Positions 589 to 29,424 of a DNA stretch of 31,776 bases are shown in pieces. Each line of letters begins with the position of its first letter. Positions within the stretch are counted from its first letter, which is position 1. Made by a program: the position numbers and the translations under genes. Under the pieces are notes generated by a model. The model saw only the letters and a list, made by a program, of their open reading frames with translations, made no database searches and had not been told where the DNA came from. Origin of the DNA: a virus; the IMG/VR virus record IMGVR_UViG_3300042691_030094, positions 1 through 31,776 of that record. One strand, written 5' to 3'.

Positions 589-1556
589 TCTGTCTTGATG
601 CTTTTAAAAACGTAAACATCACACGTGACAACGGTGAGCTACACATTTCCCCTTGTTGTATTGCACCTCTAAAAAAGGTAAATCAACTGGACTTTCAAAA
701 TGATCAATATCTTGTGGCTGTACGTGATGCCTGGAGCAAACAACAGTGGCCTGACGCATGTGTAAAATGCCTCAAACAAGAACAACAAGGACTGCCCAGT
801 AGAAGACAGCACAGCAACCAATGGTATAAAGATCACGGTGTTGATCAAGCTATGCCCGAACTCATACGCTTGGATTACTGGGTTGGTGACATTTGTAATC
901 TAGCCTGTGTGATGTGTGGACCATGGGCCAGCAGTGTGTGGAAACAAGAACTCAATCTTCCACAGAAACGATTTAACAACAATCAATACTGGCAAGAGCT
1001 GGATCTATCAAGATTGCAATATGTGCACTTTCACGGCGGTGAACCTTTGTTGAGCAAAGAACATCGTGATTTTTTAGCAGCCATTCCCAACAAACAGCAG
1101 GTGCATGTGTACTATAACACCAATGCCACTATTCAAGCTGATAATGATCTTAGAGACTTATGGAATGAATTTCGCTTGATAGAATTGGACTTCAGTATTG
1201 ATGCCATTGGTGATCAATTCAATTATATCCGATATCCTGCAGACTGGCATGCTGTGAGTGAAAATCTCACATGGTATCGGGAGCATGCTGGACACAATTG
1301 CCTGTTTGCAGTGACCACAGTGGTTAGTGTGCTTAATCAAGATCATGTGCCTGAGTTAGCTGCTTGGTTGCAATCAAACTTCGCCAGCTCACGATTTGGA
1401 GATCCTGTGGAGCATAGACTGCAACCCTGTGAAGGCGTGCTGGCAGTTGACAGTGTGCCTGAACACACTGTGAAATATCTTGATCAACTGGATCTACGTA
1501 GACAACTGGACTGGAGGAAATTGTTTCCCAGTGCAGCAGAAAAATTATTGAGCTAG
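585..1556 (+). CDS. Radical SAM protein with Cys-rich (twitch/SPASM-like) N-terminal segment
   Basis: A 323-aa protein with the canonical CX3CX2C motif (C104, C108, C111) that binds the 4Fe-4S cluster and S-adenosylmethionine, followed by HFHGGEP (residues 148-154), the usual GGEP SAM-binding motif. Before the core is a Cys-rich stretch (C24, C25, C59, C62) spaced like half of a SPASM/twitch auxiliary-cluster domain, here placed N-terminally. Such proteins recur in marine T4-like phages as 'twitch domain radical SAM' proteins of unknown substrate; peptide or protein modification is possible but not shown. The ATG overlaps the helicase stop. The 3' end overlaps the convergent polymerase gene by 12 bases. 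It needs Fe-S clusters, in line with iscU/iscA-like genes further on. Confidence 0.82.
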   Translation: MICLDAFKNVNITRDNGELHISPCCIAPLKKVNQLDFQNDQYLVAVRDAWSKQQWPDACVKCLKQEQQGLPSRRQHSNQWYKDHGVDQAMPELIRLDYWVGDICNLACVMCGPWASSVWKQELNLPQKRFNNNQYWQELDLSRLQYVHFHGGEPLLSKEHRDFLAAIPNKQQVHVYYNTNATIQADNDLRDLWNEFRLIELDFSIDAIGDQFNYIRYPADWHAVSENLTWYREHAGHNCLFAVTTVVSVLNQDHVPELAAWLQSNFASSRFGDPVEHRLQPCEGVLAVDSVPEHTVKYLDQLDLRRQLDWRKLFPSAAEKLLS

Positions 1557-3245
1557 ATATTGATCAATATTGATAGATTTCACATTGGTTCGATGGCATT
1601 GTAAAAACTGACTGTTGTCTCTACTGCGCATTTCCCCTTGTCCCACAATAACTGATCCATTTGAATATTTTATCGGACGATCCACAATTAGATCAACGTA
1701 TTCACCTTCACCCACGCCCAGAGTTATAAAATGAATATACTGTTGCCGTTCTCTGTGGAACACACGACTGTTGGCCACGATACCCGCAAATTCAAAGCGA
1801 TCCAAGTAGAGATTACGCACACCCATGTTGGGTAGAAAGCCGGGTGAGTTCCATGCTCCGTGTTCAAGAAAACTTTCCACAGGATCTTCAGTGATCCAGT
1901 TGCCAAATCCCAATTCACGCAGATCCCAGCCTGCACGTTTGGCTTCGTTACGATACACCCAACGTGCATAGGAACCTTGGCAGTGCATGAGAGCTGCCCG
2001 CCAGAACTCGCGAGGGTTGTGGGCCTTTTGATAGGCCAGGGCCCAGATCAATCTGCCAAGGTTCACTGCATGAGCACGACAAAGACCAAAGCCAGCAAGA
2101 CTTTGCATTTCCTGTCGTATGGCTTCACGTTCGGGATGATCCCCTAATCGGGTCATGAACTCCATGACTTTTTCTTCGTTGCGTTTGGCAAACGCACGTC
2201 GATACATGTCAGCTTCGTATGCGTTCACTGAAATCAATTTCATGATCTTTTCAATAGCATCATCTTCGCACACTATGGCAGATTCCTGTACCGAACGCTT
2301 GGTCCAATCATGGAAGAAGCTGGCCTTTTTGCGTCCTTCCACAGCCACTGGACGTACTAGTGCAGTGGCAAACACACAGTCGTCAACTGATGTGGGTCGT
2401 ATGGCTCTGAACAGTCTACGCATGGCAGGTGATTCGCCCTGTGTCACACCCAGCACATCGCCTCGTTGCAATAGGTCAGCAGTGAGTTCGTCTGTTCTAG
2501 GATATTCGTGAATCATGCGAGAGGAATCTATTTCCATGAGTTGGCTGAGTCCACGATTGGCTAGGATGTCAACTTTTAAATGTTCAAGGTCTTCAACTTC
2601 GTTTTTGTCTAATAGAATAAGATTGTCTTCACGGAATAGACTCTGTGGCAGTTTACGATCAAACACAATCACACCACCACAGTGCTTGCTCAAGCAGCGT
2701 TTTTTGCCTATGAGTTTTTTCTCTATGCGTTCAGCTTCTTCAACATCAATGCCCAGTTTTGCATAATTGATTTCTTTGGGCAAGCGTCCGCGCACACCCA
2801 GTCGTTTGGCAGCTTCGCGACGTGCTGATTTTTCCTTGTACATCACATAGTTTGATATGCGAGCTGTGCGCCCGGGCCAGGCATCAAATATGCGCTGCAT
2901 GGCCAGTTCTTGTCGGTGATGTGGAACGTCAATGTCCACGTCCGGCAAGTCGTCTCTAAATGGATTCAAGAAACGTGCAAGTGGTATGTTCCACTCCAAG
3001 GGATCAACATCAGTTATGCCCATGAGATAACACACCAGACTGGATCCAGCGGAGCCGCGTGTCATGTGTGGAATGTCTTGATTTAGATCTAGTACACGAC
3101 GTATTTTTAGAAAATAGTCTGTGAAACGCTGCTGTATAATAATGCCAAATTCTTCAGCTAGTCGTTCTTGATATTCTTCGTTCTCGGGGCAGGGTCTGCG
3201 AAATTCAGCCAGGAGTGATTCAATTTGTTCCAGTTCAGTTGCCAT
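1545..3245 (-). CDS. DnaE-like DNA polymerase III alpha subunit, PHP domain absent
   Basis: 566 aa, a C-family replicative polymerase core. Palm signatures are clear: GSAGSSLV (64-71), RFLNPFRDDLPDVDID (91-106) carrying the two catalytic aspartates, HCGGVIV (188-194), and LKVDILANRGL with the third aspartate D226. Later ALVRPVAVEGRK and AYQKAHNPREFWRAALM match the fingers region of bacterial DnaE. Bacterial DnaE is about twice as long; here the N-terminal PHP domain is missing and the C-terminal beta-clamp/OB part is short. It is the only minus-strand gene in the first 10 kb. The ATG has a weak AAAGG site and a candidate promoter lies at 3308-3336. Whether it is the main replicase or works beside a family-B enzyme elsewhere cannot be told here. 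Confidence 0.82.
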   Translation of the reverse strand: MATELEQIESLLAEFRRPCPENEEYQERLAEEFGIIIQQRFTDYFLKIRRVLDLNQDIPHMTRGSAGSSLVCYLMGITDVDPLEWNIPLARFLNPFRDDLPDVDIDVPHHRQELAMQRIFDAWPGRTARISNYVMYKEKSARREAAKRLGVRGRLPKEINYAKLGIDVEEAERIEKKLIGKKRCLSKHCGGVIVFDRKLPQSLFREDNLILLDKNEVEDLEHLKVDILANRGLSQLMEIDSSRMIHEYPRTDELTADLLQRGDVLGVTQGESPAMRRLFRAIRPTSVDDCVFATALVRPVAVEGRKKASFFHDWTKRSVQESAIVCEDDAIEKIMKLISVNAYEADMYRRAFAKRNEEKVMEFMTRLGDHPEREAIRQEMQSLAGFGLCRAHAVNLGRLIWALAYQKAHNPREFWRAALMHCQGSYARWVYRNEAKRAGWDLRELGFGNWITEDPVESFLEHGAWNSPGFLPNMGVRNLYLDRFEFAGIVANSRVFHRERQQYIHFITLGVGEGEYVDLIVDRPIKYSNGSVIVGQGEMRSRDNSQFLQCHRTNVKSINIDQYLAQ

Positions 3246-9829: not shown

Positions 9830-10246
9830 ATGGCTTATTCCCAACAGGTATTGGATCATTATGAAAATCCCAGGAACGTGGGCAGCTTTGACAAAAACGA
9901 TCCTGAAGTGGGCACTGGTATGGTAGGTGCTCCTGCCTGCGGTGATGTTATGCGACTACAGATAAAGGTGAATGATGCTACAGGTATTATTACAGATGCA
10001 AAATTTAAAACGTATGGCTGCGGATCGGCTATCGCGAGCTCCAGTCTGGTTACAGAGTGGGTCAAAGGAAAAACACTTGATCAAGCCAGAGAAATCAGAA
10101 ACACCAAAATTGCAGAAGAATTAGCATTACCTCCTGTCAAAATACATTGCTCAATTCTTGCAGAAGATGCTATCAAAGCAGCCATAGCAGACTACGTGTC
10201 TAAGCAGCACGTACCTGTGCCAGGCCAAACTTCTCAAACAATCTGA
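9830..10246 (+). CDS. iscU: IscU-type Fe-S cluster scaffold protein
   Basis: 138 aa, full-length scaffold on which Fe-S clusters are built. All ligands are present: C37 and D39 (APACGD), C64 (YGCGSA), H106 and C107 (KIHCS). The LPPVK motif (100-104), which in E. coli IscU is bound by the chaperone HscA, is intact. No IscS desulfurase or HscA/B is visible, so it would rely on host sulfur supply and chaperones. The C-terminus extends beyond the typical length by a few residues and overlaps the convergent desaturase gene by 47 bases. An IscA-type gene follows 1.5 kb on. It starts 16 bases after the previous stop with no clear Shine-Dalgarno. Confidence 0.93.
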   Translation: MAYSQQVLDHYENPRNVGSFDKNDPEVGTGMVGAPACGDVMRLQIKVNDATGIITDAKFKTYGCGSAIASSSLVTEWVKGKTLDQAREIRNTKIAEELALPPVKIHCSILAEDAIKAAIADYVSKQHVPVPGQTSQTI

Positions 10247-15325: not shown

Positions 15326-17650
15326 ATGGCGATAATAACCGTAGTAAAACGCGATGGCAGTCGTGTGCCACTCGCATTGGAAAAATGGCAAAGTCAAATT
15401 GCCAAGGTGTGTCAAGGCATTGCTGACGTCAGTCAGAGCATGATTGAAATCAAAGCACAGTTGCATTTCTATGATGGTATTACCACTGAAGAAATTGACG
15501 CAGTAACGCTGCGTGCCTGTGTGGATTTGATTGACATTGATGCCAATCCTGATGTGGGGCATACCAACTACCAGTACGTTGCAGGCAAGCAACGACTGAG
15601 CATGTTGCGTAAAGATGTATATGGCAGTTACGAGCCTCCTCGTCTGTATGAAATCGTAAAACGCAATGTGGCCACTGGCTTGTATACACCTGAATTGCTT
15701 GAGTGGTACACCGAAGCCGAGTGGGATCGCATGCAAGAGTTTATTGATCACAGTCGTGACGAACAGTATACCTATGCAGCTATTGAACAGCTGATTGAAA
15801 AATATCTTGTGCGTAATCGAAGTACCAAGGAGATCTATGAAACACCTCAAGTTCGCTACATGGTGGCTGCGGCAACAGTGTTCCATCGTGAAGAGCCGCA
15901 TACCGCTCGCATGCGATACATTAAAGAATATTACACAGCAGCCAGTGATGGTCTTTTTACTTTGGCTACTCCCGTTCTTGCTGGTCTGGGCACGCCTACC
16001 AAACAGTTTAGTTCTTGTGTCCTTATTCGTAGCGATGACGACCTTGATAGTATCTTCGCTTCCGGAGAAATGATGGCCAAGTATGCCAGTAAACGTGCTG
16101 GCATTGGCTTGGAGATTGGTAGACTACGTCCGCTAGGATCACCTATCCGTGGCGGCGAAATCATGCACACAGGCATGATACCATTCCTGAAAAAATGGTT
16201 TGGTGACTTAAGGAGTTGTTCACAAGGTGGCATACGCAATGCCAGTGCCACTGTGTTCTATCCTATTTGGCATCATCAGTTTGATGATCTCATTGTGCTT
16301 AAAAACAATCAAGGCACTGAAGAAACACGAGTCCGACACATGGATTATGGCGTGGTATTGTCTGCGTTCTTTTGGCGTCGTTTCAAAAATAAAGAAAATA
16401 TCACTTTCTTCGATCCCAACGAAGTACCAGACCTGTATGAAGCTTTCTATAAAGATACCAAACGGTTTGAAGATCTATATGTGAAATATGAGAAAGACAC
16501 CAAGCTGCGCAAGAAAGTTATTGCAGCAGAAGAAGTTTTTAAAAGTGGTATTCTAAAAGAGCGCACTGACACTGGTCGTATCTATCTTGTGTTTATTGAC
16601 AATGTCATGAACCAAGGGCCGTTTGATCCTGAATGGCATACCATATATCAAAGCAATCTCTGCTGCGAAATACTGTTGCCCACCAAACCATTCAAGCGAT
16701 TGGATGATGCTAATGGTCGTATTGCACTGTGCACTCTTGGCAGCATCAACTGGGGTGCTTTCCGCCATCCCGAAGACATGCGTAGAGCCTGTCGTATCCT
16801 TCAGCGTAGTTTGTGCAACATACTTGACTATCAAGACTTTTTGAGTATACAAAGCAAGCTCAGTAATGATGAGATACAACCCCTGGGTATAGGTGTTACC
16901 AATCTTGCATACTGGCACGCCAAGCGTGGGTTACAATACGGTGAAACTGATGCACTGGCTGAGGTCAAGACATGGATTGAACATCAAGCCTATTATCTTA
17001 CCGAAGCCACAGTGGAATTGGCCAAAGAGCGAGGACGCTGTGTAGACAGTGATCGCACACGCTATGGACAAGGCATATTCCCTTGGGAACTTCGAGCCGA
17101 GGGTGTAAATGAACTAGTGGATTTTGCTCCTGAACTTGATTGGGAGCCGTTAAGAGAGGAAATGAAACAGCATGGAGTACGTAACGCCACACTTATGGCT
17201 ATCGCTCCCGTGGAGAGCAGTAGTGTTGTTATTAATAGCACTAATGGCATTGAAATGCCAATGAGTCTGATCACAGTGAAAGAAAGCAAAGCAGGCAGTT
17301 TTACACAAGTGGTTCCCGACTATCATAAAATGAAAAATCGCTATCAGTTGATGTGGGATCAAACCGATTGTGTGGGCTATTTGAAAACCGCTGCTGTGTT
17401 ACAGGCCTATGTGGATCAAAGCATCAGCACCAATACCTTTTATAATCCCGCACACTTTGTGAACCGCAAGGTCCCCACAACCTTGATTGCAAAGAATCTC
17501 ATGAACGCACATCATTGGGGTGTCAAGACTTTTTACTACAGCCTTATCAACAAACAAGGTGCCAAGAGTCTGGAAAGCGAAGACGTGGTATTGCCTGTGG
17601 CCATTGATGATGACATGTTGGAAGACGACTGCGAAGCATGCAAGCTTTAA
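15326..17650 (+). CDS. nrdA: Class Ia ribonucleotide reductase, large (alpha) subunit
   Basis: 774 aa. Reduces ribonucleoside diphosphates to deoxy forms with the NrdB radical. The ATP-cone regulatory domain occupies about 1-95 (TVVKRDGSRVPL). Catalytic residues are in place: C231 (SSCVLI), N444-C446-E448 (SNLCCEI) and C469 (LCTLGSINW), the radical-transfer Tyr pair (TFYYS), and the C-terminal redox pair C769/C772. These C-terminal cysteines would be reduced by glutaredoxin, encoded 2 kb downstream. An ATP cone means allosteric on/off control is likely kept. Its spacing to the previous gene (2 bases) and to the next (9 bases) suggests one operon. Confidence 0.96.
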   Translation: MAIITVVKRDGSRVPLALEKWQSQIAKVCQGIADVSQSMIEIKAQLHFYDGITTEEIDAVTLRACVDLIDIDANPDVGHTNYQYVAGKQRLSMLRKDVYGSYEPPRLYEIVKRNVATGLYTPELLEWYTEAEWDRMQEFIDHSRDEQYTYAAIEQLIEKYLVRNRSTKEIYETPQVRYMVAAATVFHREEPHTARMRYIKEYYTAASDGLFTLATPVLAGLGTPTKQFSSCVLIRSDDDLDSIFASGEMMAKYASKRAGIGLEIGRLRPLGSPIRGGEIMHTGMIPFLKKWFGDLRSCSQGGIRNASATVFYPIWHHQFDDLIVLKNNQGTEETRVRHMDYGVVLSAFFWRRFKNKENITFFDPNEVPDLYEAFYKDTKRFEDLYVKYEKDTKLRKKVIAAEEVFKSGILKERTDTGRIYLVFIDNVMNQGPFDPEWHTIYQSNLCCEILLPTKPFKRLDDANGRIALCTLGSINWGAFRHPEDMRRACRILQRSLCNILDYQDFLSIQSKLSNDEIQPLGIGVTNLAYWHAKRGLQYGETDALAEVKTWIEHQAYYLTEATVELAKERGRCVDSDRTRYGQGIFPWELRAEGVNELVDFAPELDWEPLREEMKQHGVRNATLMAIAPVESSSVVINSTNGIEMPMSLITVKESKAGSFTQVVPDYHKMKNRYQLMWDQTDCVGYLKTAAVLQAYVDQSISTNTFYNPAHFVNRKVPTTLIAKNLMNAHHWGVKTFYYSLINKQGAKSLESEDVVLPVAIDDDMLEDDCEACKL

Positions 17651-17659
17651 AGGATTATC

Positions 17660-18292
17660 ATGAGTTTTTTAGTAGCCAATCTGCCGCCTGTGCACTGTTA
17701 CATAAGAAAAGAATTTTTATATGACTTTGAAAAAGGCCACGGAGAATTTGAGCCCTGTATTTGGGTCACTATCAAAAGCATCAGAGGACAGGCGTTTAGA
17801 ATTGAATCCTATCTACCAAATTTTGGAGCATTATACGACAAACTGCCATTGCATGCTTATGTCAGCCGAACGGATAATCTGCCAGAGACTTTTCTACCTC
17901 TAGACACGCTGCAAATCTGGGACTGTTTTGATTATGATATAACAATAATTCAAAAGGCTTTTTTGAGTAATTTGTCTTGTAAGTTCTATGCAAAAGACAA
18001 ACAATTCTATCAAGGCAATTATCTCTTTACTGTGGATCATGCTCATCCTGACAGAAATATCATTGACATGGGCTACAGTGAATGGCCTGAAGATCACAAA
18101 AGTTTCAACTTCATTGAACTAGACAACGGGCAATATGCAGCACAACCCAACAATAGATGCTTGTTCTTGGATGCTGCAAGTAACCCAAAAGAACTAAAAT
18201 TTCCAGATTTTAAAGTTTGTACCAAGAAGTATATTGTGGAACAAAATCCAAAATGGGCTTTGGGTGATTCCGACTTGGTCACATACGACTAA
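17660..18292 (+). CDS. Conserved unknown protein between nrdA and nrdB (210 aa)
   Basis: Not recognised by function. Begins MSFLVANLPPVHCYIRKEFLYDF; a protein with a similar start occurs near the reductase genes of other T4-like marine phages. Beta-rich, hydrophilic, no cysteine pair or membrane segment. It has a fair Shine-Dalgarno (AAAGGAT, spacing six) and lies nine bases after nrdA, so it is likely co-transcribed. Position suggests a link to nucleotide metabolism but it may simply be a conserved passenger. Confidence 0.72.
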   Translation: MSFLVANLPPVHCYIRKEFLYDFEKGHGEFEPCIWVTIKSIRGQAFRIESYLPNFGALYDKLPLHAYVSRTDNLPETFLPLDTLQIWDCFDYDITIIQKAFLSNLSCKFYAKDKQFYQGNYLFTVDHAHPDRNIIDMGYSEWPEDHKSFNFIELDNGQYAAQPNNRCLFLDAASNPKELKFPDFKVCTKKYIVEQNPKWALGDSDLVTYD

Positions 18293-18299
18293 CTAAATA
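18292..18299 (+). promoter_or_regulatory. Late-promoter-like motif ACTAAATA
   Basis: Overlaps the stop of the preceding gene, 65 bases before nrdB. Two mismatches to the T4 late consensus. It shares the short intergenic stretch with a sigma70-like element. Confidence 0.28.
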
Positions 18300-18311
18300 T
18301 TCGCCAGGTCG

Positions 18312-18341
18312 TTCAGTAACACTATCAACCTGTGATATAAA
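18312..18341 (+). promoter_or_regulatory. Candidate extended -10 promoter for nrdB
   Basis: TATAAA (18336-18341) is preceded by TG at 18333-18334 (TGA-TATAAA, an extended -10), with a weak TTCAGT at 18312-18317, 18 bases upstream. It would give nrdB, and the genes after it, a start separate from nrdA. Confidence 0.4.
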
Positions 18342-18363
18342 CAGAATCAATAAGGCATTTATA

Positions 18364-19467
18364 ATGAGCAAACAACAATACAATCTCGCTACCAAAACAG
18401 ACTACATGCAACGTCGCATGTTCTTGGATCCTGCAGGTCCAGTTACCATTCAACGTTTTGAAGAAGTAAAATATCCCAAGATACAAAAATTTGAACAAGA
18501 AGCACGTGGATTTTTTTGGGTACCAGAAGAAGTGAACCTAACCAAAGACGCCCAGGATTTCAAAGAGTCCAGTGACACTGTGCGTCATATCTTTACCAGT
18601 AATCTGTTACGCCAAACAGCTCTAGACAGTATTCAAGGTCGTGGCCCAAGTCAAATCTTTACTCCAGTTGTGAGTCTGCCAGAGCTGGAAGCACTGTTAT
18701 ACAATTGGACATTCTTTGAAACAAACATTCACAGCCGTAGTTACAGCCACATCATTCGTAACATCTACAACGTGCCCAAGGAAGTGTTTAACACTATCCA
18801 CGACACTGAAGAAATAGTCAATATGGCCAGTAGTGTGGGCAATTACTACGATCAACTACACACTATTAATTGTGCGAAAGAATTAGGTAGTCCTCCTGTT
18901 TCAGAAGAGCAACATATCCGAGCAATTTGGCTAGCGCTCAATGCCAGTTACGCACTAGAAGCATTTCGCTTTATGGTTTCATTTGCCACAAGTTTGGCCA
19001 TGGTGGAGAACAAAATCTTTATTGGTAATGGCAACATTATCAGCTTGATACTACAAGATGAAATCTTACATCGCGATTGGACTGCTTTCTTGATCAATCA
19101 AGTGGTCAAAGAAGATCCACGTTTTGCACAGGCTAAGATCGCGTGTGAAGCAGAAGTGCAGGTCATGTACGCAGATGTTATCCGTGAAGAAAAAGACTGG
19201 GCAGACTATTTGTTTAGTCGTGGTCCTGTGATTGGGCTGAATGCCAATATTCTCAAAGACTTTGTGGACTACACTGCATTGTCGGCACTGAAAGAAATTG
19301 GTATCAAGTATTGGAATCCAGCACCAAAAAACACTCCAATACCTTGGTTCAACAAACACGTTGACACTCACAAGAAACAAACTGCACTACAAGAAAATGA
19401 ATCAACTAACTATGTTATTGGTATCATGAGTGATGATATCAACTACGAAGAATTACCCAGTTTATAA
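18364..19467 (+). CDS. nrdB: Class Ia ribonucleotide reductase, small (beta) subunit
   Basis: 367 aa. Carries the di-iron site and tyrosyl radical for NrdA. Ligands: D88 (LDSIQGRG), E119 and H123 (ETNIHSRSY), E199 (LEAFRF), E233 and H236 (DEILHRDW); the radical tyrosine is Y127 in SRSYSHI, matching Y122 of E. coli NrdB. Compared with E. coli ETIHSRSY, one residue is inserted (N121), giving E-x3-H rather than E-x2-H at the metal site. The C-terminus ending in NYEELPSL looks like the usual NrdA docking tail. Shine-Dalgarno TAAGG at about eight bases. Confidence 0.95.
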   Translation: MSKQQYNLATKTDYMQRRMFLDPAGPVTIQRFEEVKYPKIQKFEQEARGFFWVPEEVNLTKDAQDFKESSDTVRHIFTSNLLRQTALDSIQGRGPSQIFTPVVSLPELEALLYNWTFFETNIHSRSYSHIIRNIYNVPKEVFNTIHDTEEIVNMASSVGNYYDQLHTINCAKELGSPPVSEEQHIRAIWLALNASYALEAFRFMVSFATSLAMVENKIFIGNGNIISLILQDEILHRDWTAFLINQVVKEDPRFAQAKIACEAEVQVMYADVIREEKDWADYLFSRGPVIGLNANILKDFVDYTALSALKEIGIKYWNPAPKNTPIPWFNKHVDTHKKQTALQENESTNYVIGIMSDDINYEELPSL

Positions 19468-24786: not shown

Positions 24787-26319
24787 ATGCTTCTAAGTTA
24801 TATCATGTTGATAGTGGCACTGTGTCTCAGCGCAGTTGCCGCTTTTTATTCCATAGTTGGTTTGACAGCCATATTTGCCGCGGCTGTGATTCCAATCATT
24901 CTCATGGGATCGATCTTAGAGGTAGCCAAGGTCACAGTGACCATATGGTTGCATGAATATTGGGCAAAATGTAGATTGGCCATGAAACTGTATCTAGTGC
25001 CTGCTGTGGGTGCATTAATGGTCATAACCAGCATGGGCATATTTGGATTTCTTTCCAAGGCCCACAGTGATCAAAGTTTGGTGAGTGGTGACAGTCTAGC
25101 CAAGATAGCCATATACGATGAAAAAATACAGACCTCTCGTGATAACATCGAAACCAACCGTAAGGCTCTTAAACAAATGGATGAGGCTGTGGACCAGATC
25201 ATGGGTCGCAGTGACGATGAAAAAGGAGCCGATAAGGCCGTGGCTGTGCGTAGGGCGCAACAAAAAGAGCGTCAAAGACTCCTTGCTGAAATTGCAGCCG
25301 AACAAAAGGTCATTACTCAACTTAATCAAGAAGCAGCGCCGCTTCGAGCAGAAAATAGAAAGATTGAAGCAGAAGTAGGACCTATCAAATACATCGCGGC
25401 CTTGATATACGGCGACAATCCAGACGCCAATCTGTTAGAACGTGCAGTGCGTTGGGTGATCATTGTGATCGTGGCTGTGTTTGATCCCCTGGCTATCATG
25501 ATGTTGTTGGCAGCAACAGAAAGTTTCAAATGGGAACGTGCAGCCAGAATAGAAAGACGGGTTCAAGATGAACTACACGCAGTTGCAGTCAATCCTATCA
25601 CAGTGCCCGACACATTACCAGATCCTCCGGAAACGCCGGTTGAGGAACCAAAGGCTCAAGAACAGCTAGAAGAAGACGAACCATGGCCATTCCCTATGGT
25701 GCGGCCGGTAGAAGGCAATGCCAGAATATCAGTGGGTTATCCTTCAGATAACACAAAGGAGCCGGTTAATGATGAAAAACCGCCAGAAGAAACACATGCC
25801 AATGAGTCTCCGGCAGTTGCAGTTGAAACTTTGGAAGAAATTGATGAGCACATCCAGGACCCAGATTCAACTGAAACAGCCACAAGCGATATTGAAAGCG
25901 ACGCAGAAAAAGCAGCCATGCGTGAGTGGAAAATCTCACACCCAGAAAGCACTATCAAAGAACAGCGCAGACTGGCGGATCTTGGTGTAATTCCCACAGT
26001 GCCTTGGCAAAACAGCGTGGCAATCAAGGCAGACAACGAGCCTGTTAATGGCAACGTCACAGGCTTTGGTATACAATTTCCAGACCAGCCCAACAAAGGC
26101 GATGTGTATTTGCGTGTGGATATGCTACCCACGGTGTTATACAAGTATAATGGTAAAAAATGGATTGAAATAGATAAAGACCTAACCGATACCTATGTAT
26201 GGGAAGAGGCATACATCGATTTCTTGATTGCACGTTTAGAATCAGGTGAATACGATGCAGAATTACTCACATACAGTGAACGTGAACAGATAGCCACACG
26301 TTTACAAAAAAACAGCTAA
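24787..26319 (+). CDS. Membrane protein with coiled coil and acidic linker (510 aa)
   Basis: A conserved T4-like marine phage membrane protein of unknown function. Hydrophobic helices at about 3-26, 28-48 and 68-90, then a long coiled coil (roughly 100-200, [19 protein letters not shown] onward), another membrane helix at about 222-245 ([21 protein letters not shown]), an acidic Pro/Glu-rich linker (about 275-385), and a compact C-terminal domain containing [28 protein letters not shown]. The C-terminal part looks like a small beta domain seen in other phage proteins. It may act on the cell envelope or in host takeover. Weak Shine-Dalgarno. Followed one base later by clpX. Confidence 0.75.
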
Positions 26320-26320
26320 T

Positions 26321-27529
26321 ATGACTCAAGACTACGCATCATCATGCTCTTTCTGCGGCAAGCACAAGGACGCAGTAAAAAAACTTATAGTAGGAGACAA
26401 AGTAGGCATTTGCAATGAATGTGTGCATCTCTGCGATGAACTTTTAGACAAAGATCTTCCTGCTGATACAGCGCCACGCCGTATTGAATTGGATCCAAAA
26501 GAAATCAAACAGTTCTTGGATCAATATGTGATAGGACAGGACAAGGCCAAGATTCTGTTGAGTGTGGCCATAGTAAATCATTACAAGCGAATCCACAATC
26601 CTGATCCAGCAGTGGAAATTGAAAAAAGTAATGTGCTTTTACTAGGACCCACAGGGTCTGGCAAAACACTATTGGCCAAAACAGTTGCTCGTTACCTTGA
26701 TGTGCCGTTTGCTATTGCTGACGCTACCAGCTTAACTGAAGCTGGCTATGTGGGCGATGATGTTGAAAGTTTGATCAGTAGATTGTATATCGAAAGCAAA
26801 GGTGACATTGAAAAAACACAAAGAGGCATTGTGTTTATCGATGAAATTGATAAAATTTCTAGAAAGAGTGAAAGCAGTAGCATTACTCGTGATGTCAGCG
26901 GAGAAGGTGTGCAACAGGCGCTGTTGAAATTGGTAGAAGGTACTAGATGCCGCATTCCTCCTACTGTGGGAAGAAAAAATCCCAATCAAGAATTCATTGA
27001 AATAGATACCACTAATATCCTGTTCATAGCCGGTGGCGCTTTTGTAGGACTGGAAGATATCATACAAAATCGCGTACAAGGCACCAGCATGGGATTTTCA
27101 GCTGAAATCAACAATAAGTCAACGCAGGACTTTATGTCACATGTGAATCCTGATGACCTTGTGAAATTTGGCTTGATTCCAGAATTCGTAGGACGCTTTA
27201 CCAATTGGGTGGTGCTACAAGAGCTAGATGTAGATCAGTTGGTGAATATCATGAAAGAAGTAAAAAACAGTCTGATCAGTCAATACCAATGGATATTTGC
27301 TCAAGACACAGTGAAATTATCGTTTGATTCCGCTGCACTGCTGGCCATAGCCGATCGTGCCAAGAAAAACAAAACCGGGGCTCGTGGATTACACAGTGAG
27401 CTTGAACGCATACTGCTGCCACACATGTATCATTTGCGCGATTATCAAAAACATGAAATACAAAAAGTCAATATAGACGTAGATTTGGTAAATAACCCTA
27501 CACATTTTAATGAGGGAACTAGTGCGTAA
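26321..27529 (+). CDS. clpX: ClpX, ATP-dependent unfoldase
   Basis: 402 aa, close to full bacterial length. Zinc-binding domain C9/C12/C31/C34; Walker A GPTGSGKT (109-116); Walker B FIDEID (172-177); pore loop GYVGDD (142-147); sensor-2 GARGL near the end. The ClpP-binding loop is present as MGF (257-259; IGF in E. coli), so docking to host ClpP is likely. The RKH loop that helps recognise ssrA-tagged substrates reads RKN (218-220), suggesting changed substrate choice. It starts one base after the membrane protein gene and overlaps the start of the bS21 frame if its early start codons are used. Phage ClpX could redirect host proteolysis. Confidence 0.96.
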
Positions 27530-27536
27530 AGGTAAA

Positions 27537-27740
27537 ATGATCGTGGTCCACGATGGAAACGTGGAAAAGGCTCTTAGAAAACTAAAGAAAAAAATACAGG
27601 AAAGCCGCCTGCTGATCAACTTACGCGAACGCGACCAGTACACCAAACCAACCACTCGTCGTAAACTCAAGGCCAATGCTGCTCGTAATCGCTGGCGCAA
27701 GTACCTTGACAGCCAAAAACTTCCACCCAAAAAATATTGA
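27537..27740 (+). CDS. rpsU: Ribosomal protein bS21
   Basis: 67 aa (from the ATG at 27537). The body ALRKLKKKIQES...RERDQYTKPTTRRKLK... matches bS21: basic helices, KPTTRRK box and a basic C-terminus. bS21 sits at the mRNA exit near the anti-Shine-Dalgarno and is one of few ribosomal proteins encoded by phages. In-frame alternative starts exist: GTG 27522 (with GAGGGA four bases upstream) and ATG 27510, both inside clpX. The 27537 start is chosen because it aligns with the N-terminus of bacterial bS21 (MIVVHDGN). The -35 of the next promoter overlaps its stop codon. Confidence 0.9.
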   Translation: MIVVHDGNVEKALRKLKKKIQESRLLINLRERDQYTKPTTRRKLKANAARNRWRKYLDSQKLPPKKY

Positions 27741-27767
27741 CTCAATTGTGAATTTGCTGTATAAATA
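27737..27767 (+). promoter_or_regulatory. Combined sigma70 and T4-late-type promoter for hsp20
   Basis: TTGACT (27737-27742), 17-base spacer, TATAAA (27760-27765), which is at the same time the perfect T4 late sequence TATAAATA (27760-27767). Either host sigma70 polymerase or a phage late sigma could use it. A hairpin begins four bases after, at the predicted transcript start (27772-27795: TGTAGC, bulged G, CCGA/TCGG, GCTACA). Confidence 0.72.
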
Positions 27768-27771
27768 TGTT

Positions 27772-27795
27772 TGTAGCGCCGATGGTCGGGCTACA
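27772..27795 (+). promoter_or_regulatory. 5'-terminal hairpin of the hsp20 leader
   Basis: TGTAGC (27772-27777), a bulged G at 27778, CCGA (27779-27782), loop TGG, TCGG (27786-27789), GCTACA (27790-27795): 10 bp in all. It lies at the expected transcript start and 33 bases before the hsp20 ATG. A role in mRNA stability, or in heat sensing, is possible; the Shine-Dalgarno AAAGGAG (27816-27822) is not inside the stem. Confidence 0.55.
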
Positions 27796-27828
27796 ACTTA
27801 GTCAACTTGCTTAATAAAGGAGAATGAC

Positions 27829-28269
27829 ATGACTAAAATCACATCTTTTGATCTTACCCCTTTCTATCGTAATACCGTTGGTATTGATAGACTTTTTGAT
27901 CGTATTACCAACCAAATTGATGCTGCTGCAACCGGAAACTATCCGCCATATGACATTGTACGTGTGTCTGAGGATCGTTATGAAATTCGTGTGGCCGCTG
28001 CTGGATTTGGACAGGGCGAAATTGACGTTGAGTTTCACGAAGGTAAGCTAACCATTCGCGGAGCCCACAAAGAAGACAGCGATGCTTCTGAAGTACAATA
28101 TCTTCATCATGGGATAAGTGCACGTACATTTGTACGTCATTTTACTCTTGCTGATTATGTTGAAGTTAAAGGTGCTGTGATGCGTGACGGAATTCTAACC
28201 GTGGAACTGGAGCGCATTATCCCTGAAAGTCAAAAACCCAAGTCAATTGCAATCACATACGCAGGTTGA
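27829..28269 (+). CDS. Small heat-shock protein (Hsp20/IbpA-like)
   Basis: 146 aa. Begins MTKITSFDLTPFYRNTVGIDRLFD, like IbpA/HspA N-termini, then an alpha-crystallin domain (about 38-130; PPYDIVRV, GFGQGEIDVEF, GILTVELER with the G-x-L signature) and a C-terminal tail with a K-SIAI anchor motif for oligomers. ATP-independent holdase that keeps unfolded proteins soluble. The strong Shine-Dalgarno (AAAGGAG) and its own promoter suggest high expression. T4-like cyanophages also carry Hsp20; here it is joined to clpX, bS21 and a ClpS-like gene. Confidence 0.94.
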   Translation: MTKITSFDLTPFYRNTVGIDRLFDRITNQIDAAATGNYPPYDIVRVSEDRYEIRVAAAGFGQGEIDVEFHEGKLTIRGAHKEDSDASEVQYLHHGISARTFVRHFTLADYVEVKGAVMRDGILTVELERIIPESQKPKSIAITYAG

Positions 28270-28274
28270 TATAG

Positions 28275-28282
28275 TGTAAATA
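28275..28282 (+). promoter_or_regulatory. Late-promoter-like motif TGTAAATA
   Basis: One or two mismatches to TATAAATA, followed two bases later by a strong hairpin and 43 bases later by the ClpS-like ATG. Confidence 0.4.
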
Positions 28283-28283
28283 C

Positions 28284-28303
28284 AAGGGGAGGCAACTCCC
28301 CTT
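28284..28303 (+). other. Strong GNRA hairpin (leader or terminator of hsp20)
   Basis: Perfect 8-bp stem AAGGGGAG (28284-28291) / CTCCCCTT (28296-28303) with GCAA tetraloop (GNRA type). It could end the hsp20 transcript (downstream T tract only interrupted: TTTAAATTT) or form the 5' end of the ClpS-like transcript starting after TGTAAATA (28275-28282). The same arrangement, late motif followed by a hairpin, occurs at 27760-27795. Confidence 0.7.
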
Positions 28304-28324
28304 TAAATTTCAAGGAATTTTCAA

Positions 28325-28636
28325 ATGTCTAATGCTGAAGCTGTAACCGAGACCAAAACACGTATCAACGAAGAAGTAAAAGAACCACCGATGTTTAAGG
28401 TCATATATCTAAACGACAATCAAACTTCTATGGAATTTGTGGTACAAAGTCTGGTGGAGTTTTTTGATTACAATGAAGACACAGCCACGGATATTACTCT
28501 TGACATTCATAACATTGGGTCAGCCACTGTTGCTGTGCTGCCTTATGAACTAGCGGAGCAAAAGGGTGTGGAAGTTACTCTTAGTGCAAGAGCAAATAAC
28601 TTTCCACTGCAAGTGCGTTTAGAGGCCGACGCCTAA
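28325..28636 (+). CDS. ClpS-like Clp adaptor
   Basis: 103 aa. After a 20-residue flexible N-terminus, PPMFKVIYLNDNQTSMEFVV matches the ClpS core. In E. coli ClpS the pocket that binds N-degrons uses N34, D35, D36 and H66; here N30, D31 and H62 (LDIHNIG) are kept but the second aspartate is N32. ClpS normally delivers N-degron proteins to ClpA; no ClpA is encoded here, but ClpX is, so it may redirect host ClpA or work with the phage ClpX (the latter speculative). Shine-Dalgarno AAGGAA seven bases upstream. Its end overlaps the convergent phosphoesterase gene by four bases. Confidence 0.86.
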   Translation: MSNAEAVTETKTRINEEVKEPPMFKVIYLNDNQTSMEFVVQSLVEFFDYNEDTATDITLDIHNIGSATVAVLPYELAEQKGVEVTLSARANNFPLQVRLEADA

Positions 28637-29424
28637 GAGATTTCAATACGTTTTGGAAAGAACACTGATTGTTTGAAGTCGGTGTCTCCTCTTCCTCTAC
28701 AATTGTTTACATAACGCACGTTGTCTAACACACGATCAACTGGCATGTGATAATGACCAAAACACCAAGTGTGAATTTTGCGTTCTGTATCGTTGGTAAG
28801 AGCAATGTTCATAAGACTGTTTACCATGGTGTTGAATCTATAGTTACCCACAAGATCAATGTCGTGGTCTATTAGATCTTTACGTGGCACTGTGTGAGTT
28901 ACGATCACAATCTTTTTAACGTCTTGATGTCTTTGAAGCTTTTGAACACTACGGATAATATAAGCAGCATCAGTGCGCGACAGTTCTTTAACAAGATCAC
29001 TACAGGCATCATAGCCATCGTTAAACATCTTGTTCAACCACCAGTGCTGTGTTTGATCTTCATCAATGGTTTCGTCGGCATCAAAACCCCACCAACCATT
29101 AGTGGCCAGCAGTGCAACACCGTTTAACACAACCACGTTTTCTTGAAGATATACCACATTCTTCATTTTTTTGATAGATCTATTGAGGTTGCGGTAGCTT
29201 TCAGCAAGGTCGGACATGTAAAGCTTGTGTTCATCATTGCCATCTATGTAAAATACCATATGATAGCATTTTGATAGATGTTGTAATGTATCTAGCAGTT
29301 GTTCTCGGTCAAGAGCGATGTCTCCGGCCACAACAGCAAATGGACTGGTAGCTTGTCCTGTCCAATCAAAATTGTTCCAGGTTTCGTGATGTAGATCAGA
29401 AATTAAATCAAACGTAAAAGGCAT
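28633..29424 (-). CDS. Calcineurin-like metallophosphoesterase
   Basis: 263 aa with the full set of two-metal phosphoesterase motifs: DLHHE (9-13), AGDIALD (33-39), GNDEH (62-66), VTHT (around 175-178) and GHYH (about 223-226). Substrate unknown; relatives hydrolyse phosphomono- or diesters, nucleotides or cyclic dinucleotides. Such genes are common in T4-like marine phages. Convergent with the ClpS-like gene (4-base overlap) and divergent from the next small gene, with a TTTAAATA-like late motif on the minus strand a few bases upstream (around 29431-29438) and no strong Shine-Dalgarno. Confidence 0.88.
   Translation of the reverse strand: MPFTFDLISDLHHETWNNFDWTGQATSPFAVVAGDIALDREQLLDTLQHLSKCYHMVFYIDGNDEHKLYMSDLAESYRNLNRSIKKMKNVVYLQENVVVLNGVALLATNGWWGFDADETIDEDQTQHWWLNKMFNDGYDACSDLVKELSRTDAAYIIRSVQKLQRHQDVKKIVIVTHTVPRKDLIDHDIDLVGNYRFNTMVNSLMNIALTNDTERKIHTWCFGHYHMPVDRVLDNVRYVNNCRGRGDTDFKQSVFFPKRIEIS

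What the first reader, a model, noticed from the sequence alone, without database searches (positions are those of the whole stretch)
26321..28636. Phage proteostasis and translation cluster: ClpX, bS21, Hsp20 and a ClpS-like adaptor in a row
Four genes that act on protein fate lie together in 2.3 kb: an unfoldase, a ribosomal protein, a holdase and a proteolysis adaptor. Seen in sequence: intact Walker motifs and MGF loop in ClpX, bS21 core, alpha-crystallin domain, ClpS core. Single genes of this kind are known in phages (established knowledge: bS21 and Hsp20 in marine phages); the grouping suggests a coordinated programme that rebuilds host ribosomes and redirects Clp proteolysis (inference).
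Basis: partly seen in the sequence, partly recalled or inferred. Interest (0 to 1): 0.82.

Follow-up and report, generated by a model that had tools for sequence, protein, structure and literature searches.

The report
Phage chaperone cluster with heat-sensor-like RNA
A large aquatic virus of bacteria carries a tightly conserved set of genes for folding, unfolding and degrading proteins plus one ribosome protein, and its chaperone genes are headed by an RNA leader of the type bacteria use to switch on heat-shock chaperones, which is new for phages as far as I could find.

Summary
The four genes are real and intact: ClpX 26321-27529, bS21 27537-27740, Hsp20 27829-28269, ClpS 28325-28636. All 90 related viral contigs in which the four are visible keep this order. 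Cultivated Pseudomonas phages PA5oct and Paride have it too, with small genes inserted. The grouping is therefore not new, and the literature half-reports it (bS21 near Hsp20/Clp, PMC9723584). All four genes are under strong purifying selection. (1) hsp20 has its own promoter-like sequence and a two-hairpin 5' leader with the UUGCU/Shine-Dalgarno core of ROSE RNA thermometers. It is the only Rfam hit in the window (ROSE_3, below cut-off; a relative passes), with strong covariation. A model of it, run over 3.3 Mb of related phages, hits only in front of hsp20, dnaK, groES and one small helical protein gene. The anatomy argues against a single operon. Thermosensing itself is not shown: nearest-neighbour folding does not predict temperature-dependent opening. 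Best reading: a conserved phage proteostasis/translation island whose chaperones are under ROSE-type translational control.

The parts
24787..26319 (+). 510-aa membrane/coiled-coil protein directly upstream of clpX (function unknown); conserved companion of the island
   Evidence: homologue directly upstream of clpX in most relatives (both genes seen in 107 loci, gap <400 in 95), also in distant loci without clpX and in Salicola SCTP-2
26321..27529 (+). clpX: full-length ClpX AAA+ unfoldase with zinc-binding domain and MGF ClpP-docking loop
   Evidence: Pfam/NCBIfam; residues; phage clade 100/99 with PA5oct+Phosso+Atu_ph07 as sister 98/92
27537..27740 (+). rpsU-like gene for ribosomal protein bS21 (67 aa; alternative start 27510)
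   Evidence: Pfam PF01165, TIGR00030 above cut-off; SD aaaggt before 27537
27737..27767 (+). promoter-like sequence of hsp20: TTGACT-17-TATAAA; TATAAATA also fits the T4-type late motif
   Evidence: conserved at this place; TATAA[TA] in 83 of 99 distinct leaders, exact TATAAATA in 61 of 135 vs 2% in shuffles
27772..27795 (+). hairpin I of the ROSE-type leader (10 pairs, conserved bulged G27778)
   Evidence: 9 of 10 pairs show changes on both sides, 99% of cells paired; fold z-score -3.4
27806..27822 (+). hairpin II: U(U/C)GCU motif (27807-27811) facing the Shine-Dalgarno AGGAG (27818-27822) with bulged G27809
   Evidence: near-invariant pairs, U.G to C-G changes in 6; Rfam ROSE_3 29.7 bits E=0.02 over 27770-27834
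27829..28269 (+). hsp20: small heat shock protein of the IbpA type, with IXI tail and the Arg that IbpA needs to bind its own mRNA
   Evidence: Pfam PF00011 and PHROG 432; Arg93 equivalent in 135/135 (PMC10474464)
28284..28303 (+). 8-bp stem-loop between hsp20 and clpS (leader or terminator)
   Evidence: fold -14.4 kcal/mol; a stem-loop of different sequence at the same place in most relatives printed
28325..28636 (+). clpS: N-degron adaptor with intact substrate pocket and ClpA-contact residues
   Evidence: Pfam PF02617; N34, D35, H66, E79 139/139, K84 138/139
28633..29424 (-). metallophosphoesterase on the opposite strand, conserved right border of the island
   Evidence: PHROG 1649; follows clpS in 94 of 94 loci that show both

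Best explanation
This is a conserved protein-fate island of a lineage of large T4-like phages. ClpX and bS21 are made from one tightly packed stretch; bS21 replaces host bS21 in ribosomes (inferred), and ClpX, with the ClpP that the lineage encodes elsewhere, unfolds and degrades chosen proteins (inferred). Hsp20 is transcribed from its own promoter, with a ROSE-type 5' leader that folds over the ribosome-binding site, so that the holdase is made mainly when heat or protein aggregation calls for it; the same leader stands before dnaK, groES and a small helical protein gene in relatives, making an RNA-controlled chaperone regulon (placement shown, switching inferred). ClpS delivers N-degron substrates to ClpAP, phage-encoded in large relatives (partners shown, activity inferred). 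The likely use is to keep the overproduced virion proteins soluble and to clear host or phage proteins in the productive phase.
For: Order kept 90/90, shared with PA5oct and Paride and loosely with Phosso. Catalytic and contact residues intact in ClpX, ClpS and Hsp20, bS21 core kept; dN/dS 0.025-0.09. Chaperones DnaK (11 loci) and GroEL (3) are inserted between clpX/bS21 and hsp20 of relatives. ClpP in 19/22 and ClpA in 11/22 large records, triads and docking loops intact. Leader: only Rfam hit of the window; relative L124 46.5 bits above the cut-off of 43; covariation 148 cells vs 30 in shuffles; 0 hits in 683 kb of cellular DNA; 39 of 39 hits in 3.3 Mb of phage DNA lie directly before hsp20 (20), dnaK (4), groES (1) or the small helical protein gene (14). 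Weaker matches before hsp20 of Methylophilales phage Melnitz-1, Phosso and cyanophages S-RSM4, P-TIM40, S-SRM01.
Against: No expression or biochemical data. Nearest-neighbour folding gives SD openness of about 0.45 at 5-42 C, no lower than upstream-shuffled controls, while the ROSE_3 consensus stays closed at all temperatures; so the switch is not predicted by this method, which ignores the non-standard pairs of ROSE elements. The window's own leader is below the Rfam cut-off. The window is a fragment and shows neither ClpP nor ClpA. About 20 distant loci keep bS21-Hsp20-ClpS without ClpX. The loci are relatives, not independent gains, and alignment A3 leans toward the model's structure.
Confidence: 0.68

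Rival explanations
1. The leader is not a thermometer but the binding site for Hsp20 itself: the protein represses its own translation and is titrated away by aggregated proteins, so the phage senses aggregation (an IbpA-type feedback), possibly also acting on host ibpA mRNA.
For: Arg93, essential for IbpA mRNA binding (PMC10474464), is conserved in 135/135 phage Hsp20; leader hairpins conserved; cool aquatic habitats make heat an infrequent cue (inference).
Against: No binding data; Arg93 may be kept for the fold; dnaK, groES and the small helical protein carry the leader too, which would need regulation in trans.
Confidence: 0.3
2. Plain neighbourhood: the four genes are late auxiliary genes that happen to sit together by descent in one phage lineage and act separately.
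For: Separate promoter-like and leader elements; ClpX and ClpS are not partners; the same genes are scattered in Phosso and Atu_ph07 (PMC6102473).
Against: Order kept at 55-70% protein identity and in PA5oct; repeated insertion of further chaperones (DnaK, GroESL), peptide deformylase and Fe-S genes into the same interval suggests functional clustering.
Confidence: 0.25
3. Host takeover: phage ClpX and ClpS dock on host ClpP and ClpA and change their specificity.
For: Docking loop and ClpA-contact residues intact; the window itself shows no ClpP or ClpA.
Against: 19 of 22 large relatives carry ClpP (most of them two) and 11 of 22 carry ClpA, including all but G008, G011 and G014 of the 14 contigs over 125 kb, so host partners are not required; mixed complexes remain possible.
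Confidence: 0.2
4. The proteins are packaged in the virion and act at entry.
For: A possibility raised for bS21 in PMC9723584.
Against: In the PA5oct record several neighbouring genes carry an 'ESI-MS/MS' note but ClpX, S21, Hsp20 and ClpS do not; that note is only an indirect sign.
Confidence: 0.07

Closest known systems
Pseudomonas phages PA5oct / Paride (Wroclawvirus, Arenbergviridae)
   Same: ClpX-bS21-(2 genes)-Hsp20-ClpS in the same order and strand, bS21 start overlapping the clpX end
   Different: 44% ClpX identity; two extra genes before hsp20; leader match weak (16.6 and 12.1 bits); no metallophosphoesterase border
bS21-encoding phages of Chen et al. 2022 (PMC9723584)
   Same: bS21; their survey of 900 bS21 phages notes Hsp20 (127) and Clp (50 and 47) within ten genes
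   Different: their own clades carry bS21 on the reverse strand among structural genes; no ordered island, ClpS or leader is described in the sections read
Short ROSE-like RNA thermometers of Pseudomonas ibpA (Rfam ROSE_3, RF02523; PMC3669281)
   Same: two hairpins, about 60-nt leader, U(U/C)GCU facing the SD, small heat shock gene, a G-C/C-G swapping pair in hairpin I
   Different: phage-borne; hairpin II weaker; window score 29.7 below the cut-off 43; also placed before dnaK, groES and a small helical protein gene
Agrobacterium phage Atu_ph07 (PMC6102473)
   Same: ClpX, ClpA, ClpP and ClpS in one genome
   Different: genes scattered, no island
FourU thermometer of prophage SPbeta blyA (PMC10586365)
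   Same: RNA thermometer on a phage gene
   Different: different thermometer class, lysis gene, not a chaperone

Membership tests
ROSE-type RNA thermometer (ROSE_3) | 5' leader of a small heat shock gene | tested here: met
   window 27770-27834 ends at the hsp20 start
ROSE-type RNA thermometer (ROSE_3) | two hairpins supported by covariation | tested here: met
   helix I 9/10 pairs changed on both sides; helix II mostly invariant, 1 pair changed on both sides
ROSE-type RNA thermometer (ROSE_3) | U(U/C)GCU motif opposite the SD | tested here: met
   UUGCU 27807-27811 and AGGAG 27818-27822; UCGCU in some relatives
ROSE-type RNA thermometer (ROSE_3) | Rfam gathering score 43 bits | tested here: not met
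   window 29.7 bits, E=0.02; relative L124 46.5 bits passes
ROSE-type RNA thermometer (ROSE_3) | melts with temperature and frees the SD | tested here: inconclusive
   nearest-neighbour folding shows no clear opening; the consensus control is not informative either
ClpX | zinc domain, Walker A/B, GYVG pore loop, Arg finger, sensor 2 | tested here: met
   NCBIfam equivalog cut-off passed
ClpX | ClpP-docking IGF-type loop | tested here: met
   MGF in window; [IM]GF 110/110
ClpX | unfolds and degrades ssrA-tagged proteins with ClpP | not testable with these tools
   RKH loop reads RKN in the window; needs biochemistry
ClpS | N-degron pocket (Asn34, Asp35, His66) and ClpA contacts | tested here: met
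   139/139 for N34, D35, H66, E79
ClpS | NCBIfam ClpS equivalog cut-off | tested here: not met
   81.9 vs 149 bits; Pfam ClpS cut-off is met
IbpA-type small heat shock protein | alpha-crystallin domain and IXI tail | tested here: met
IbpA-type small heat shock protein | NCBIfam IbpA equivalog cut-off | tested here: not met
   132.6 vs 212 bits
Ribosomal protein bS21 | S21 family domain above curated cut-off | tested here: met
   PF01165 48 bits, TIGR00030 56.4 bits
Ribosomal protein bS21 | incorporated into 30S subunits | not testable with these tools
   shown for pelagiphage bS21 in E. coli (PMC6375957)

The most novel reading that the evidence does not exclude
Large aquatic phages, and weakly also T4-like cyanophages, run a chaperone regulon of their own in which hsp20, dnaK, groES and a small helical protein are all controlled in translation by ROSE-type RNA leaders, with phage Hsp20 as temperature or aggregation sensor (possibly also acting on host ibpA mRNA), next to a self-contained phage ClpXP/ClpAPS system.
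Probability: 0.4. Interest if true: 0.82.

Novelty: new variant of a known kind. Interest (0 to 1): 0.64.

Why it matters
Phage chaperones are usually filed as incidental auxiliary genes. Here a whole phage lineage keeps a protein-fate island over deep divergence, encodes most or all of a Clp system, and places its chaperones behind RNA leaders of the kind bacteria use to sense heat and aggregation. That makes two questions testable: whether phages sense proteotoxic stress during infection, and whether infection outcome depends on temperature through an RNA switch. The leader model also gives a search tool that finds phage chaperone genes by their RNA.

Tried and rejected
Single operon under one promoter: rejected as the default, because a promoter-like sequence and a 5' leader stand between bS21 and hsp20. 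Recent acquisition of clpX from a host: rejected; the phage sequences form one clade (100/99) with other jumbo phages as sister (98/92), best cellular identity about 54-56%. Dead genes: rejected. MAFFT alignment A1 with RNAalifold gave no consensus structure because the bulge shifts register; a seed of equal-length hairpins (A2) and a covariance model were used instead. 15 relatives scanned at the Rfam gathering threshold: no hit. In silico melting: no temperature switch predicted. Phasin identity of the small helical protein: not supported by Pfam or NCBIfam. The 'Acinetobacter phage MD-2021a' hits were set aside: one contig carries bacterial chromosomal genes.

Full report
WHAT IS THERE. The window is a 31,776-base fragment of an uncultured phage (virus record) with T4-like replication genes, ribonucleotide reductase and tail genes. 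The four genes of the finding are real: ClpX 26321-27529, bS21 (best start 27537) to 27740, Hsp20 27829-28269 and ClpS 28325-28636, all on +. NCBIfam accepts ClpX and S21 above equivalog cut-offs; Hsp20 is closest to IbpA and ClpS to ClpS, both below the equivalog cut-offs but above the Pfam ones.

CONSERVATION. ClpX and ClpS searches of viral contigs gave 160 hits in about 149 contigs. All four genes are visible in 90 contigs, and all 90 keep the order and strand; a metallophosphoesterase on the other strand follows in 94/94. These loci are relatives, so the count measures maintenance, not independent gains. Cultivated Pseudomonas phages PA5oct and Paride show ClpX-bS21-two genes-Hsp20-ClpS, Sinorhizobium phage Phosso shows the same order spread over 17 kb, and Salicola SCTP-2 keeps the upstream membrane protein, ClpX and ClpS together. 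In a ClpX tree the phage clade has 100/99 support, with PA5oct, Phosso and Atu_ph07 as sister (98/92), so the gene is an old jumbo-phage gene. dN/dS to the nearest relatives is 0.025-0.09 where synonymous sites are not saturated. About 20 distant loci keep bS21-Hsp20-ClpS without ClpX.

PROTEINS. Over 110 phage ClpX the zinc cysteines, pore loop, Walker B, Arg finger and sensor 2 are invariant and the docking loop is [IM]GF; over 139 ClpS the N-degron pocket and ClpA-contact residues are kept; over 135 Hsp20 the IXI tail is nearly invariant and the Arg needed by IbpA to bind its own mRNA (PMC10474464) is invariant.

PARTNERS ELSEWHERE IN THE LINEAGE. Of 22 large related records, 19 carry ClpP, most of them two copies, and 11 carry ClpA. 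The copies examined have complete Ser-His-Asp triads, and ClpA has two Walker A motifs and an IGF-type loop. In the records I located, the ClpP pair lies roughly 15-20 kb from clpX. The window itself is too short to show these genes.

THE LEADER. Between bS21 and hsp20 lie TTGACT-17-TATAAA(TA) at 27737-27767 and a 60-nt leader: hairpin I 27772-27795, then UUGCU facing AGGAG (hairpin II). A search of all 4227 Rfam families gave one match in the whole window, ROSE_3 at 27770-27834, 29.7 bits, E=0.02, below its cut-off of 43; in relative L124 the same element scores 46.5 and passes; Methylophilales phage Melnitz-1 scores 34.1. A covariance model from 26 leaders found 81 matches in 69 sources and none in 683 kb of cellular DNA. 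Helix I has changes on both sides at 9 of 10 pairs (148 cells in the whole structure vs 30 in shuffles; 98.6% paired vs about 60% when slid). Run over 22 large phage records (3.3 Mb) the model gave 39 hits. All lie directly before a start codon: hsp20 20, dnaK 4, groES 1, and a 72-93-aa helical protein 14 (with coordinates). Weaker matches stand exactly before hsp20 in cyanophages S-RSM4, P-TIM40 and S-SRM01 and in Phosso. The design matches the short ROSE thermometers of Pseudomonas ibpA (PMC3669281).

WHAT IS SHOWN AND WHAT IS INFERRED. Shown: gene identity, conservation, intact residues, placement and covariation of the leader, ClpA/ClpP in relatives. Inferred: thermosensing or aggregation feedback, incorporation of bS21 (shown only for a pelagiphage protein, PMC6375957), partners and clients of ClpX and ClpS, timing. 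Against thermosensing: nearest-neighbour folding gives an SD about 45% open at all temperatures, though such folding omits non-standard pairs and the control is not informative.

LITERATURE. Chen et al. (PMC9723584) report Hsp20 and Clp within ten genes of bS21 in many phages and late expression of bS21; jumbo-phage surveys list ClpX, ClpS, Hsp20 and Hsp10 (PMC7824862); Atu_ph07 has a broad Clp set (PMC6102473). Ten searches of the held library found a fourU thermometer in prophage SPbeta (PMC10586365) but no ROSE element on a phage gene and no phage DnaK under such control; subscription papers and preprints are not held, so this is absence in one library only.

VERDICT. The new part is the ROSE-type chaperone leader and the wider Clp set.

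Noticed in passing
L055, L062, L063, L087, L089, L091, L124, L127 between clpX/bS21 and hsp20; L134:10923: Phage-encoded dnaK genes (618-633 aa; the L134 frame is shorter, 455 aa), each preceded by the ROSE-type leader; 11 of 130 loci have dnaK in the bS21-hsp20 interval.
   Followed up: partly
L258:345, L257:1337, L254 and L280-L290 (next to the ClpP pair of several genomes): A 72-93-aa helical protein gene with the same ROSE-type leader in 14 genomes; looks phasin-like by eye, but no Pfam or NCBIfam match for those tested.
   Followed up: partly
L018:7179-7436 and 35 other loci: Unknown 84-90-aa protein family beginning MYIEF between clpX/bS21 and hsp20; it stands where bS21 would be in L018, L037, L070 and others.
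   Followed up: no
window 28270-28324: clpS leader with GTAAATACA and a stem-loop whose stem sequence changes among relatives while the stem-loop persists: a second candidate regulatory RNA or terminator.
   Followed up: no
L080:8641-9738: NifU-like, peptide deformylase and Fe-S assembly genes inserted at the same bS21-hsp20 interval.
   Followed up: no
window 1545-3245 (-): DNA polymerase ORF of 566 aa matching only an inner part (357-843 of 1190) of the phage polymerase profile: possibly a split polymerase.
   Followed up: no
window 15326-19467: Ribonucleotide reductase large subunit, ferredoxin-like PHROG 3704 and small subunit in a row; NifU-like Fe-S protein at 9830-10246.
   Followed up: no
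L243 and L277 (PA5oct, Paride): Phage FtsH and an FtsH-interacting membrane protein lie 2-4 kb downstream of clpS in PA5oct: a further protease next to the island.
   Followed up: no
CAKLQH020000043 (L296): A record in the phage collection named Acinetobacter phage MD-2021a carries bacterial chromosomal genes (argC, aroF, clpA): contamination.
   Followed up: yes
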